Positions 5,931-11,534 of a DNA stretch of 36,482 nt are shown piece by piece (position 1 is the stretch's first letter; every line of letters begins with the position of its first letter). Source of the stretch: Deltaproteobacteria bacterium (GTDB lineage: Bacteria; Desulfobacterota; Binatia; DP-6); assembly GCA_005888095.1 (NCBI GenBank), contig VBKF01000163.1, positions 1-36,482 of the forward strand, in the 5' to 3' direction. The position numbers were made by a program, and so were the translations under genes. A model generated the notes under the pieces. It was not told the origin of the DNA, did no database searches, and worked only from the letters and a program-made list of their open reading frames with translations.

Positions 5931-6914
5931 TCAGCCGTCCGGCCCGCTGACCGTGACAGGCGCTCCGCTCTCCGCCGAGCGGTGGCAGGCCTCGGCGATG
6001 AGCACCGCCCGCGCCCCGTCCTCGGGCGTGGCCAGCGGCGGCTCGCCGTCCAGGATGAGCCGGGCGAAGGCGCGCAGCACCTCGCGCACCGTCGGGACGA
6101 GCTCGCCGAGCGGCAGGGGCGTGCGCTCCAGGCCGCGCACCGCATACGCGGAGCCGAGCTGATGGTCGCCGACGAGCTGGCCCTCGTCGCCGGCGACGTC
6201 GATCAGCCCCGAGCGGCCCCGCGTGGCGCGGCAGCCGCTCACCGCGACGAGCGCGTCGCTGCCGGCGAGCCGGAGCACCGCCGCGAAGTTGTCCTCCGTG
6301 CGCAGGGTGCGGACACGGGCCGCGCGGCAGAACACCTCGGTGACCTCGCATCCGGTGAGGAACCGCACGAGGTCGAAGCTGTGCACGCCGGTGTGCAGCA
6401 GGATGCCGCCGCCCGACATGGACGGATCGTCGAGCCAGACGAGCGGCGAGGGCTCGAAGCGCTGGTTCAGGACGACCGCGTGCAGCGCGCCGATCTCGGG
6501 CAGGCGCGCGCGGATGGCGCGCACGACGGCGTTCCAGCGGAGCGTCTGGGCCATGAGGCACGGGACGCGGGCGGTGCGCAGCACGCGCACGACCTCGACG
6601 GCGGCAGCGCCCGTGGTGGCGAGCGGCTTCTCGATCAGCAAGGGCTTCCCCGCGGCCGCGACGGCCTCGGCGATCGCGGGGTGGAGGACGGGCGGCACGA
6701 CCGCGATCACCGCCTCGACGGCCGGATCTGCGACGAGCGCCCGCCAGTCGGCGTGGAAGCGGCAGCCGAGGCGGGCGGCGTCATCGCGGCCTCGGCTCGC
6801 GTCACGCCGGGAAAGCGCGGCGAGCGCGAGCTCCGGAACGTCTGTGCGCATATGCGCCAGGTAACGCTGCCCGTGCTTGCCCGCTCCGACGAGCCCGACC
6901 CCCACCCGCCGCAT
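5931..6914 (-). CDS. Gfo/Idh/MocA-family NAD(P)-dependent oxidoreductase
   Basis: 327 residues. ATG 6914 lies 11 nt after the stop of the upstream diiron gene and gives the expected family N-terminus. The Rossmann motif VGLVGAGKHGQ (GxGxxG) is at residues ~6-16, and the conserved 'EKPLATT' is near residue 95, where the Lys acts in catalysis in this family. The C-terminal alpha/beta domain carries 'GGGILLHTGVHSFDLVRFL' with the His typical of the substrate site. Family members oxidise or reduce sugars, inositols and other polyols; the substrate cannot be told here. It is the last gene of a four-gene minus-strand operon with an SCP2-like protein and two diiron proteins, so it may process the oxygenated product or supply a cofactor-dependent step (inference). 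Confidence 0.85.
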   Translation of the reverse strand: MRRVGVGLVGAGKHGQRYLAHMRTDVPELALAALSRRDASRGRDDAARLGCRFHADWRALVADPAVEAVIAVVPPVLHPAIAEAVAAAGKPLLIEKPLATTGAAAVEVVRVLRTARVPCLMAQTLRWNAVVRAIRARLPEIGALHAVVLNQRFEPSPLVWLDDPSMSGGGILLHTGVHSFDLVRFLTGCEVTEVFCRAARVRTLRTEDNFAAVLRLAGSDALVAVSGCRATRGRSGLIDVAGDEGQLVGDHQLGSAYAVRGLERTPLPLGELVPTVREVLRAFARLILDGEPPLATPEDGARAVLIAEACHRSAESGAPVTVSGPDG

Positions 6915-6925
6915 CCGGACCGCGG

Positions 6926-8023
6926 TCAGGAGTCGAGGCGGGGCAGCCGGCTCCGCTCGCGGCGATCGCCGAGGCCGGCCGACGCCGCGCGCTCGAAGTA
7001 CTCCTCGAGGGCGGCCGCGAACCAGCGGCGCGCGAAGCGGCTGCCCACCGCGAGGCGCTCGCGATCGAGCGACCCGGCGGCGAGGAGGACGAGCGGCTCG
7101 AGGAACTCGGGGCTCCCGGCGATGCCGAGGACCACGTGTTCGGTGCGGTCGAGGTACTCGCCGAGCGCCACGACCTTGGCGGGCTGATGGGCCAGGTGAT
7201 AGCGCATGTGGCCCACGCCGTACGCCACCGAGCGCGCGACGTCCTGCATCGCGAGCGTGCCGAGCAGCCGGTCGGCGCGCGTCTCCGCCAGCGTGGCGAT
7301 CGCCCGGTACATGGCCAGCACGAAGCCGCCGAGCAGCAGGTTCATGCCGAGCGACGCCTCGGGATAGGTCTCGGCCGAGAGCAGCTCCTTCAGCGCCTGC
7401 TCCGCCGACGTGCTCGCCCGCCCGAGCCCCTGTCCGCTCGCGAGCGCGCGCTTGCGGCAGGCCTCGACGTGTCGCGCCTCGTCGATCATCTGGGCGCAGA
7501 GGAAGCTCTTCAGCTCGAGGAGCTCCTGGTTGATCGAGAAGACCCACTTGCTCGGCATCTCCATCGCGACCAGCGCCACCTCCTCGAGCAGGGTGCAGAG
7601 CTGGGCCCTCGCCGCGTCGCGCACGGGGTCGGCGCCCGCCGCGAGCTCCCCCCACGGGACGTCGACCGCCGGCGCCCAGCGGCGGGACTTGGCCTCCTCG
7701 TAGAGGGCCACGACGTTGTCGGACCAGACGTCGCTCCGGCGGTTCACGGTGTAGCCGAGGTCGGGGAGCTTGGTGACCAGCACGCTGCCGCGCGCCGCCA
7801 TGCTGTACCGGTTGCGGATCAGCTCGGGGATCGCGTCGTAGCCGTAGGGGCCGAGGTTGCAGTCCTCGTAGGTGAGGCCGCGGCGCGGATCGGCCGGACG
7901 TGCCCGCACGCGGGCGCCCTGCGCCTGGTACCACTCGAGGGTGAGGTTCCCGGAGAGGATGCTCGTGACGAGCTCGATCAGCTGCTCGTCCTCGAAGAAG
8001 TTCTTCTCCGCGTAGTAGGCCAC
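6926..8023 (-). CDS. Diiron ferritin-like paralogue with a degenerate metal site (putative non-catalytic partner)
   Basis: 365 residues, clearly paralogous to the next gene upstream (shared 'GLT..D...GxYG...PELIR', 'YEEA..R.W', 'DVPWGEL' and 'EASL'). It keeps a Glu at 148, the first ExxH (E182/H185 in 'DEARHVE') and E222. In the second metal motif the paralogue's DEARHVGYG is DVARSVAYG here, so the Glu and His ligands are Val262 and Ser265. The Glu at paralogue position 233 is Gly, and position 151 is Ala. A normal two-iron centre therefore seems impossible. By analogy with other diiron families that pair an active with an inactive subunit, it may be a structural partner of the upstream enzyme. 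It starts 7 nt after that gene and lies 11 nt before the dehydrogenase. Confidence 0.75.
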   Translation of the reverse strand: MAYYAEKNFFEDEQLIELVTSILSGNLTLEWYQAQGARVRARPADPRRGLTYEDCNLGPYGYDAIPELIRNRYSMAARGSVLVTKLPDLGYTVNRRSDVWSDNVVALYEEAKSRRWAPAVDVPWGELAAGADPVRDAARAQLCTLLEEVALVAMEMPSKWVFSINQELLELKSFLCAQMIDEARHVEACRKRALASGQGLGRASTSAEQALKELLSAETYPEASLGMNLLLGGFVLAMYRAIATLAETRADRLLGTLAMQDVARSVAYGVGHMRYHLAHQPAKVVALGEYLDRTEHVVLGIAGSPEFLEPLVLLAAGSLDRERLAVGSRFARRWFAAALEEYFERAASAGLGDRRERSRLPRLDS

Positions 8024-8030
8024 GCGCGGC

Positions 8031-9155
8031 TCAGGCGGCCATCGTCTGCTTGCGCATCTCCACCATCTTCCAGAGCCGCGACCGCTCGCGCCGCTCGGGC
8101 AGGCCGCACTTGGCGAGCCGCTCGAAATATTCGTCGGTCTGCTTCAGCTGGAAGGCGTTCGTGATGCGGACCCCTTCCGCGATATTTTCCTTCTTGAGGC
8201 CCTTGCCGGAGAGGATGATGAACGGCTCGAGCACCTCGGTGGCATAGCCGCCGCCGAAGACGAAGTTCTCGGCCTCGTCGAGGTGGTGGTGGATCGCCTC
8301 GCGCCGCTCGGGGAAGTGGTCGAGCACCCACTTGAGATGCTGCATGCCGTAGCCGACGTGGCGCGCCTCGTCCTGCATGACCAGCCGGAAGAGCTTCTTG
8401 TCGCCCTCGGTGGGGGAGATGTACTCGCTGAAGCGGAAGAGCGTGAGCACCATGCCCTCGGCCTGGAGGTGGAGCGCGAGGGAGGCCTCGGCGAAGCTGT
8501 CGGCATCGCGCAGGAACTTGAGATTGAACTCGTTCTGCGCACTCGCCCGCATGAGGCCCCAGCCGGTGGAGAGCGCGCGCTTGCGGAAGATCTCGGCGTG
8601 CCGCGCCTCGTCCATCGCCTGCGTGGCGATGAAGTTCTTCACCTCGAAGAAGTCGGCGTTGAGGCGTCCCATCCACTTGGCGGGGACGTCGGTGGCGATC
8701 ATCTCGACCTCGGTCAAGAAGGTGAGCAGCTGGGCGTACGCCTTGCCGATGTCCTCGGGCAGGTCGACCGACTGGAGCTCAGCCCATGGGATGTCGGTCG
8801 TCGCGTTCCACTGCCGGGTCATCGCCTCCTCGTAGTAGCCCTCGATGTTGTACGCCCACACCTCGCTCTTGCGGCTCACCTCCGCCTGGAGGTCGGGCAG
8901 CCCTTCGGGCATGACGGCGCCGCGGGGCGCGAAGCTCCGGTTCTCGCGGATCAGCTCCGGCATCTCGGTGAAGCCGTAAGCCCCGACGTCGAGGTCCCGG
9001 AACGTGAGGCCGCGCCGCGCGTTCTCGGGCCGGCAGGCGACACGCTCGCGCGGCACGTCCATCCACGAGAGGTCGAGGTCGCCGCGCATCATGCGCCGGA
9101 AGCGGTCGACGAAGGCCTGGTCCTCGGTGAAGTCGGTCGTGCTCAGGTAGCTCAT
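8031..9155 (-). CDS. Diiron ferritin-like oxygenase-type protein with complete ligand set
   Basis: 374 residues. ATG 9155 overlaps the preceding stop in ATGA, and the sequence starts MSYLSTTDFTEDQ. It has the four-helix diiron pattern: Glu149/Glu151 ('LTEVEMIA'), E183xxH186 ('MDEARHAE'), Glu223/Glu233 ('AEASLALHLQAEG') and E263xxH266 ('QDEARHVGYG'). This carboxylate/His set is shared by the R2-like, acyl desaturase and N-oxygenase branches of the ferritin-like superfamily, which activate O2. I cannot assign a branch or substrate. The coupled SCP2-like gene suggests a hydrophobic substrate. Its degenerate paralogue directly downstream suggests a hetero-oligomer. Confidence 0.8.
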   Translation of the reverse strand: MSYLSTTDFTEDQAFVDRFRRMMRGDLDLSWMDVPRERVACRPENARRGLTFRDLDVGAYGFTEMPELIRENRSFAPRGAVMPEGLPDLQAEVSRKSEVWAYNIEGYYEEAMTRQWNATTDIPWAELQSVDLPEDIGKAYAQLLTFLTEVEMIATDVPAKWMGRLNADFFEVKNFIATQAMDEARHAEIFRKRALSTGWGLMRASAQNEFNLKFLRDADSFAEASLALHLQAEGMVLTLFRFSEYISPTEGDKKLFRLVMQDEARHVGYGMQHLKWVLDHFPERREAIHHHLDEAENFVFGGGYATEVLEPFIILSGKGLKKENIAEGVRITNAFQLKQTDEYFERLAKCGLPERRERSRLWKMVEMRKQTMAA

Positions 9156-9664
9156 GGGACACTCCTCCTCGGCTCGTCGCGCCGTGCGGGGGGTCGGGAG
9201 CCGTCGGGGTACACGTAGTCGACGCGGGCGGAGAGGTCGAGGAACTCCTGGATGCTCTCGGCAAAGCGGTAGAGCTTGTCGTGACCGTCGGGGTCGTCGT
9301 AGCGCACCCGCAGCCGCTCGCCGAAGTGCGTCAGCGTGTTCAGGCTCTGGGCGGTGTCGGCCGCGCCGAGCGCGTGGATGGTGTCGAACATCTCCCGCCA
9401 CGCGCCGAACGGCCCTTCGACCACGAAGTCGGTCTCGACACCCGCCAGGCCCTCCATCACGCGGACGCAGTCGAAGACCTCGAAGCGCAGCGCGAACTCG
9501 GCTGGCTCTCCGCCGTTGTCCGGGCTAATGCGAACCCCGAACGTGGTGTCGAAGAAGCCGAGTCGGCTGAAGCGCTCCCGCTCCGCCCGCATCGCGTCGC
9601 GCAAGGCCTCGAAGAACTCGCGGGACGGGAACCGGATCGGCGAGGGAGCGGGCACACGGGGCAC
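9152..9664 (-). CDS. SCP2-like (sterol/lipid carrier domain) small protein
   Basis: About 170 residues if translation begins at GTG 9664 (GTG 9655 is also possible); sequence further upstream in this frame overlaps the divergent nth gene and is unlikely to be coding. The pattern 'FALRFEVFDCVRVMEG', then 'ETDFVVEGPFGAWREMFDTI' and 'ESIQEFLDLSARVDYVY' resembles the alpha/beta SCP2 fold of small lipid-binding proteins. Family resemblance is moderate and rests on pattern only. The stop overlaps the start of the catalytic-type diiron gene (ATGA), making it the first gene of the operon. A role in presenting a hydrophobic substrate is inference. Confidence 0.6.
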   Translation of the reverse strand: MPRVPAPSPIRFPSREFFEALRDAMRAERERFSRLGFFDTTFGVRISPDNGGEPAEFALRFEVFDCVRVMEGLAGVETDFVVEGPFGAWREMFDTIHALGAADTAQSLNTLTHFGERLRVRYDDPDGHDKLYRFAESIQEFLDLSARVDYVYPDGSRPPARRDEPRRSVP

Positions 9665-11180: not shown

Positions 11181-11534
11181 ATGGCGTACATCATCACGCG
11201 GCTCTGTCGCGACTGCCTCGACACCGGGTGCGTGGCCGTCTGCCCCGTCGACTGCATCTACGAGTACACGGGCTCGGATCGAGCGCAGTGGCCGAATCAG
11301 CTCTACATCCACCCCGACGAGTGCATCGACTGCGGCGCGTGCGAGCCGGAGTGTCCGTGGCAGGCGATCTTCGAGGAGGTCGCCGTGCCCGACGTCTTCA
11401 AGGACGACACGCCGCTCAACTACAAGATCATGGAGGACATGAGCGACTTCAAGGTCGCTCAGCACAAGAAGATCGATCACCCCACCGGCGAGCAGGTGGC
11501 GGCCAACAAGCAGAAGTGGGGGTGGACGGGCTGA
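11181..11534 (+). CDS. 7Fe/8Fe-type ferredoxin
   Basis: 117 residues, ATG 11181 with a GAGGAG SD. There are two cysteine clusters: '[17 protein letters not shown]' near the N-terminus (spacing typical of the atypical or [3Fe-4S] site) and '[12 protein letters not shown]' (C-x2-C-x2-C-x3-CP, a [4Fe-4S] site). The ~50-residue C-terminal tail is charged and ends 'KQKWGWTG', as in many FdxA-like proteins. It is a soluble low-potential electron carrier; the partner is unknown. It is 1.5 kb from the diiron operon, so a role as its reductant is possible but not shown by the layout. Confidence 0.88.

What the first reader, a model, noticed from the sequence alone, without database searches (positions are those of the whole stretch)
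5931..9664. Candidate two-component diiron oxygenase operon: active and degenerate paralogues with an SCP2-like and a dehydrogenase gene
Two paralogous ferritin-like proteins are encoded back to back. The first has both ExxH motifs and four carboxylates. The second has lost Glu and His of the second motif (DVARS instead of DEARH), one helix-E Glu (Gly232) and one helix-B Glu (Ala150). Upstream is a coupled SCP2-like protein and downstream a Gfo/Idh/MocA dehydrogenase. Pairing of an active and an inactive diiron subunit is known in methane/toluene monooxygenases and in yeast ribonucleotide reductase, but these proteins do not read as either. The SCP2-like gene hints at a sterol, lipid or hydrocarbon substrate.
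Basis: partly seen in the sequence, partly recalled or inferred. Interest (0 to 1): 0.65.

Follow-up and report, generated by a model that had tools for sequence, protein, structure and literature searches.

The report
Diiron enzyme with metal-less twin subunit
A little-studied bacterium and its relatives carry a conserved three-gene module - a small protein shaped like a lipid carrier, an iron enzyme, and a twin of that enzyme that has lost its iron-binding site but is still kept intact by selection - which looks like an undescribed multi-part oxygenase for a greasy substrate.

Summary
A (8031-9155 -) has all six ligands of a dimetal site; B (6926-8023 -), 41% identical, has lost four of six; an SCP2-fold protein S (9152-9664 -) overlaps A by 4 bp; a Gfo/Idh dehydrogenase follows B. 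In the class, 36 of 148 genomes carry B and all 36 also carry A; where both lie on one contig (34 fetched loci and the window) they are adjacent, A first. The six ligands are invariant in 37 of 37 A; 0 of 36 scorable B has the set. B is one old clade, sister to A, under purifying selection. S is tied to the enzyme: 79 of 85 S places lie within 300 bp, same strand, of a diiron match, in either gene order. Degenerate partners arose at least once more. Gfo/Idh is not core (6 of 39 records). Best reading: heteromeric diiron oxygenase with A catalytic, B a non-catalytic subunit, S a carrier of a hydrophobic substrate. It works like PaaA/PaaC or the methane monooxygenase alpha/beta pair but matches neither family by sequence. 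Complex formation, metal content and substrate are untested.

The parts
9152..9664 (-). S: SCP2-fold protein, 170 aa, GTG start with GGAG upstream; its stop overlaps the A start (ATGA)
   Evidence: immediately upstream of A in 34 of 36 fetched A loci
8031..9155 (-). A: ligand-complete diiron-type (R2-like ferritin fold) protein, 374 aa; E151, E183, H186, E233, E263, H266
   Evidence: ligands invariant in 37 of 37 A rows; model pLDDT 84.4, best fold matches VlmB 6d9f/8wvr Z 23.4
6926..8023 (-). B: degenerate paralogue, 365 aa, GTG start, 7 bp after A; A150, G232, V262, S265 in place of ligands, E182xxH185 kept
   Evidence: B clade sister to A; dN/dS 0.05-0.25 in 13 pairs
5931..6914 (-). Gfo/Idh/MocA dehydrogenase, 11 bp after B; clade-specific neighbour, not core
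   Evidence: Pfam PF01408 7.5e-21; homologue found in 6 of 39 records searched
11181..11534 (+). FdxA-like 4Fe-4S ferredoxin on the other strand; possible electron donor, weak link
   Evidence: NCBIfam FdxA_Actino 85.8 bits, below its cut-off of 125; a ferredoxin-type gene follows S in 6 solo loci (Pfam checked for two of them)

Best explanation
S-A-B is a three-gene module for a heteromeric O2-activating diiron enzyme acting on a hydrophobic substrate. A binds two metals and does the chemistry. B, an old duplicate that keeps the fold and the second-shell residues but no dimetal site, takes the place of one protomer of an ancestral homodimer as a structural or regulatory subunit, as PaaC does beside PaaA. 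S, an SCP2-fold protein, holds the greasy substrate and hands it to A (or helps gate the site). Electrons probably come from a ferredoxin encoded elsewhere in most of these genomes. Shown: gene content, conservation, ligand patterns, predicted folds of A and S, selection, linkage. Inferred: metal binding, A-B contact, S function, oxygenase chemistry, the ancestral homodimer.
For: A: six ligands invariant in 37 of 37; the model fold ties with VlmB, aldehyde-deformylating oxygenase, R2-like oxidase and methane monooxygenase hydroxylase, Z 23.4-22.4. B: no complete ligand set in any of 36 scorable rows; E233 and E263 in 0, H266 in 1, E151 in 2, E183 in 7, H186 in about half, while Q261, D262, R265, Y269, E149, Q179 and R185 stay at 97% or more in both sets. 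Ligand columns vary more in B than random sets of A-invariant columns (p 0.002). B dN/dS 0.05-0.25 in 13 hand-picked close pairs. A-B adjacent, A first, gaps 1-280 bp, in 34 of 34 fetched loci holding both. S: all 58 genomes with S have a diiron match, and 79 of 85 S places are within 300 bp of one on the same strand. Further degenerate-partner lineages outside B. Contrast: 98 of 100 wider homologues keep all six ligands, the other two are gapped there.
Against: No complex was modelled or seen. The mirror of A and B identities (r 0.95) is expected from vertical descent alone. Window B keeps one ExxH pair, and about half of B rows keep H186. S could act by protein contact rather than lipid binding. 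No ferredoxin gene is regularly adjacent in the A-B loci and reductases were not searched for. No substrate or product is indicated. The contrast set was fetched partly with a DEARHVEA pattern, so it favours the first ExxH.
Confidence: 0.58

Rival explanations
1. S is an effector protein that docks on A/B and controls O2 and substrate access, as MmoB does in methane monooxygenase (recalled), not a lipid carrier.
For: Small alpha/beta protein linked to the diiron genes in either order; its invariant residues include W81, D121, R125 and Q131 (numbering), which could be a docking face.
Against: The predicted fold is SCP2, a lipid-cavity fold (Z 13.3 to 2cx7); the SCP2 domain of UbiJ is proposed to bind a polyisoprenoid tail (abstract of PMC9499169).
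Confidence: 0.17
2. B is not a subunit of A but a separate fold-only protein (for example a hydrophobic-ligand binder or a regulator) that is merely co-expressed.
For: Ligand columns have drifted to many different residues, and B has its own invariant residues such as Y52, Y91, Q166, S173 and Y275.
Against: Next to A in 34 of 34 loci holding both, never found without A in the 148 genomes; degenerate partners recur beside active ones elsewhere.
Confidence: 0.17
3. B keeps a different metal site or a metal-free radical, so it is a second catalyst.
For: E182xxH185 kept in the window lineage; the D2 degenerate copies share a fixed pattern at five of the six former ligands in 4 of 4 genomes.
Against: Across 36 B rows no common set of replacement ligands is left at the six columns.
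Confidence: 0.05
4. B is a decaying pseudogene.
For: Ligands lost; G209's B match contains one TAG and is split over two contigs.
Against: No internal stop in 35 of 36 B matches, dN/dS 0.05-0.25 in 13 pairs, 85 columns at 97% identity or more; the clade spans eight families.
Confidence: 0.01

Closest known systems
Phenylacetyl-CoA epoxidase PaaA/PaaC (PaaABCE)
   Same: Active diiron subunit plus same-fold structural subunit in one heterodimer, and an extra small subunit (passages of PMC4498308)
   Different: No PaaA_PaaC Pfam match at E<=1 among 33 diiron rows (A and solo types) or 28 B rows; PaaA and PaaC are 17% identical, A and B 41%; an SCP2-fold protein instead of PaaB
Bacterial multicomponent monooxygenases (MMOH alpha/beta with MmoB)
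   Same: Diiron alpha, metal-less beta, small alpha/beta partner (layout recalled); MMOH is among the fold matches of A at Z 22.4
   Different: No phenol/methane hydroxylase Pfam match at E<=1; no gamma subunit or MmoB was recognised in the four-gene cluster
VlmB / R2-like ligand-binding oxidase / AurF superfamily
   Same: Nearest by profile (VlmB homologue 6d9f, 2.7e-11) and by fold; AurF matches in 15 of 33 rows, best 6.6e-8
   Different: 14-21% identity in the fold alignments; far below the R2lox cut-off (26.7 against 194 bits); a linked SCP2 gene is not known to me for them (recall, not searched)
UbiJ (SCP2 domain of the Ubi metabolon)
   Same: SCP2-fold protein proposed to hold the greasy tail of biosynthetic intermediates (abstract of PMC9499169); fold match Z 8.5
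   Different: No SCP2 Pfam match for S; S is tied to a diiron gene, and the S-A-B module is patchy, in 37 of 148 genomes of the class (with G255)
Yeast ribonucleotide reductase Rnr2/Rnr4
   Same: Active and metal-less R2 paralogues as heterodimer (recalled)
   Different: Ribonuc_red_sm matches are weak: window A 17.2 bits against a cut-off of 33.6; R1 genes were not searched for

Membership tests
Diiron carboxylate R2-like ferritin superfamily (A) | Four carboxylates and two His in E-(ExxH)-E-(ExxH) order on a helical bundle | tested here: met
   37 of 37 A rows; model and fold search
Diiron carboxylate R2-like ferritin superfamily (B) | Complete dimetal ligand set | tested here: not met
   0 of 36 scorable B rows; fold inferred from 41% identity to A, not modelled
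PaaA_PaaC | Match to the Pfam family | tested here: not met
   not among families at E<=1 for 33 diiron rows and 28 B rows
Bacterial multicomponent monooxygenase | Match to the hydroxylase alpha/beta Pfam family | tested here: not met
   not among families at E<=1
Bacterial multicomponent monooxygenase | Dedicated reductase and effector in the cluster | tested here: inconclusive
   only a ferredoxin motif scan was run; reductases and effectors were not searched for
R2-like ligand-binding oxidase | Score over the NCBIfam equivalog cut-off | tested here: not met
   A: 26.7 bits against 194
AurF family PF11583 | Score over the gathering cut-off | tested here: inconclusive
   15 of 33 diiron rows match at E<=1, best 6.6e-8; window A itself does not
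SCP2 (S) | SCP2 fold | tested here: met
   model, Z 13.3, rmsd 2.6, 126 residues to 2cx7
SCP2 (S) | Pfam SCP2 sequence match | tested here: not met
   0 of 33 S rows at E<=10
SCP2 (S) | Binds lipid | not testable with these tools
   needs protein
Active/inactive diiron heterodimer | A and B form one complex | not tested

The most novel reading that the evidence does not exclude
An undescribed class of multicomponent diiron oxygenase that reached the alpha / metal-less beta / small partner layout independently of methane monooxygenase and PaaABCE, with a dedicated SCP2-fold protein as substrate-loading subunit, and in which the metal-less partner evolved at least twice from the same SCP2-coupled family.
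Probability: 0.35. Interest if true: 0.8.

Novelty: new variant of a known kind. Interest (0 to 1): 0.6.

Why it matters
Why some diiron oxygenases carry a metal-less twin subunit is, as far as I know, still debated. Here is one family in which solo intact enzymes, old A-B pairs and a second lineage of pairs exist side by side, all tied to the same SCP2-fold partner, so the step can be compared and tested. It would also be a new way of delivering a water-insoluble substrate to a soluble oxygenase.

Tried and rejected
Gfo/Idh as a core subunit: rejected, homologue in 6 of 39 records: next to B in the window, L134, L135, L136 and (about 200 bp) L137, 4.3 kb away in L139.

Hopanoid as the general substrate: rejected as general. 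Hopene cyclase was found in 85 of 143 genomes of the class at E<=1e-50. Of the 37 S-A-B genomes, 34 were in that sample and 25 matched; the other nine (G018, G056, G274, G275, G277, G279, G281, G282, G283) have no match even at E<=1e-20, and the three unsampled ones do. Four of the nine are 98-100% complete. The oxidosqualene-type model lit up the same 85 genomes.

Wider operon: neighbours beyond S-A-B differ between families, so there is no pathway context for A-B. Around solo homologues and D pairs there are luciferase-like monooxygenases, short-chain and acyl-CoA dehydrogenases, an epoxide hydrolase and TetR regulators: a catabolic flavour only.

S fused to a 1037-residue protein in L183: rejected, an artefact of my extension through a stop codon. 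Three independent origins of degenerate partners: not shown; D1 and D2 degenerate copies held together are not rejected (p 0.34), so at least two. The B+D1 rejection is modest (p 0.0275), involves long branches, and the groups were chosen after seeing the tree; only L187, L188 and L189 stood for D1 and D2 there.

Diiron genomes without S: 9 of 67 in the comparison. Three (G216, G248, G250) were not in the sample and do carry S; the other six (G220, G259, G260, G270, G294, G295) hold only remote relatives at 27-30% identity and have no S at E<=1e-5. S places not near a diiron match: 6 of 85 (two in G209, one each in G230, G226, G217, G281); in G230 a degenerate diiron gene lies between, in G226 no diiron gene was found in the fetched stretch.

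Papers: the rows listed (20 of 142; 12 of 448; 3 of 3; 12 of 12; 5 of 5; 6 of 7; 10 of 418; 12 of 65) showed, by title and start of abstract, nothing on an SCP2-linked diiron pair; one open-licence library only. PMC4498308 and PMC8262859: passages found by term; PMC9499169: abstract and outline; all others: listings only.

Full report
What is there. On the minus strand of the window lie four tightly packed genes: S (9664-9152, GTG start), A (9155-8031, start overlapping the S stop as ATGA), B (8023-6926, GTG, 7 bp after A) and a Gfo/Idh/MocA dehydrogenase (6914-5931, 11 bp after B). The genome is a 5.46 Mb assembly in 271 contigs.

The paralogues. A and B are 41% identical. A reads E151, E183xxH186, E233, E263xxH266. 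B reads A150, E182xxH185, G232, V262xxS265. Neither passes a Pfam or NCBIfam cut-off. A profile of A and its solo homologues (33 rows) finds the VlmB homologue 6d9f (2.7e-11), then R2-like ligand-binding oxidases. The A model (pLDDT 84.4, pTM 0.83) matches VlmB (Z 23.4), aldehyde-deformylating oxygenase (22.7), R2-like oxidase (22.4) and methane monooxygenase hydroxylase (22.4); these are tied, so the fold gives the superfamily, not the reaction.

The pair is conserved. In the phylum, 6 of 198 genomes matched the B query at E<=1e-20: the window's own and five of the same class. In the class, 67 of 148 genomes matched at E<=1e-15, the window's own included; 36 have a B orthologue and 37 an A orthologue. 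The odd one is G255, whose contig ends inside A. In G334, and partly in G209, A and B are on different contigs. Where both are on one fetched contig, A precedes B on the same strand in 34 of 34 loci, gap 1-280 bp. In 37 A rows all six ligands are invariant. Of 37 B rows one is a fragment without these columns; in the other 36, E151 is kept in 2, E183 in 7, H186 in about half, E233 in 0, E263 in 0, H266 in 1. Non-ligand residues around the site, such as Q261, D262, R265 and Y269, stay fixed in both sets. Among 148 columns invariant in A, the six ligand columns are more variable in B than random sets of six (p 0.002). B has dN/dS 0.05-0.25 in 13 hand-picked close pairs, A 0.02-0.13. B is therefore a maintained protein that has lost its metal site.

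History. In a 56-row maximum-likelihood tree A and B are each one clade (100/100) and sisters (100/99); the 112-row quick tree agrees. So one duplication preceded the spread of the pair over eight families. Two other kinds of tandem pair exist: D1 (G215; G217 in two contigs) and D2 (G230, G237, G238; G236 in pieces), an intact gene followed by a degenerate one. Holding the D1 or D2 degenerate copies with B is rejected (p 0.0275 and 0.0074); holding D1 and D2 together is not (p 0.34). Degenerate partners thus arose at least twice, with the caveats given under Tried and rejected. As a contrast, of 100 wider homologues in loci L022-L098, 98 have all six ligands and the other two are gapped there, although 23 of those loci hold two such genes; that set is biased towards the first ExxH by the patterns used to fetch it.

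The partner S. A 33-row S alignment has no SCP2 match in Pfam, but its best PDB profile hits are SCP2 entries (E 0.03) and the model is SCP2-like: Z 13.3 to 2cx7 and 12.8 to 1wfr, then 10.0 and below. S lies directly upstream of A in 34 of 36 fetched A loci; of the two others, L110 ends 55 bp upstream of A, and in G209 (L158) S is on another contig. Beside solo homologues and D pairs S lies downstream, in 19 of the 20 loci fetched for them. Over the class, 58 of 143 genomes have S, all 58 have a diiron match, and 79 of 85 S places are within 300 bp of one on the same strand, 32 with S first and 47 with the diiron gene first. Of the 67 diiron genomes, the only ones without S are six that hold remote relatives. 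Linkage that survives a change of gene order points to a working partnership. One Actinomycetota MAG (L022) has a homologue, S and a ferredoxin in a row, though its diiron gene lacks about 40 residues including the E233 region.

Electrons and context. A ferredoxin-type gene follows S on the same strand in L180, L182, L183, L185, L173 and L022 by motif; Pfam was checked for L173 and L022. Next to A-B no such gene is regular; the FdxA-like gene at 11181-11534 recurs only in L134, L135 and L170, of the window's family. Gfo/Idh homologues were found in 6 of 39 records.

Mechanism. Most likely A is the catalyst, B its metal-less partner subunit, and S the carrier that brings a hydrophobic substrate to A. 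The precedents are PaaA/PaaC, where a same-fold structural subunit makes a stable heterodimer with the catalytic one (passages of PMC4498308), and UbiJ, whose SCP2 domain is proposed to hold the tail of ubiquinone intermediates (abstract of PMC9499169). The substrate is open. A self-made hopanoid is unlikely as the general substrate, since 9 of 37 S-A-B genomes show no hopene cyclase.

Limits. Nothing here shows that A and B touch, that A binds metal, or that S binds lipid. The surveys hold one genome per species, many incomplete, and phyla other than the window's were reached only through one capped scan.

Noticed in passing
L188 7444-8607, L189 8980-10212, L192 4862-6130, L196 6531-7835: The D2 degenerate copies share a fixed pattern at the six ligand positions (L/M/F, Y, M, N, C, H) in 4 of 4 genomes, unlike the drifting B copies; a repurposed site is possible.
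   Followed up: partly
L184 7446-8558 (G273): A solo, S-linked homologue with E233K and E263Q while its near sister L181 is intact at the six positions: a recent loss of ligands without a tandem partner; an intact homologue lies elsewhere in the same genome (L185).
   Followed up: no
L178 5449-7863 and L173 2945-5359: A NorB-like protein (COX1 with NorB cytochrome c-like domain, Pfam for L178) starts 40 bp after S in L178; a homologue lies about 2.4 kb after S in L173. Reductase or dismutase was not checked.
   Followed up: no
L190 7791-8870 and 9277-10356 (G222): Two intact homologues in divergent orientation, the second followed by S.
   Followed up: no
G199:C184:1499-3394 and G200:C4:6266-8161: Second cyclase genes that fit the oxidosqualene-type model far better than the hopene model: candidate sterol makers; neither genome matched A or B.
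   Followed up: no
L028, L030, L032-L037 and others: 23 of the distant loci, many titled Reyranella, Enhydrobacter or Rhodospirillales, hold two AurF-like diiron genes, often 2-4 kb apart, both with complete ligands except one cut by a contig end.
   Followed up: partly
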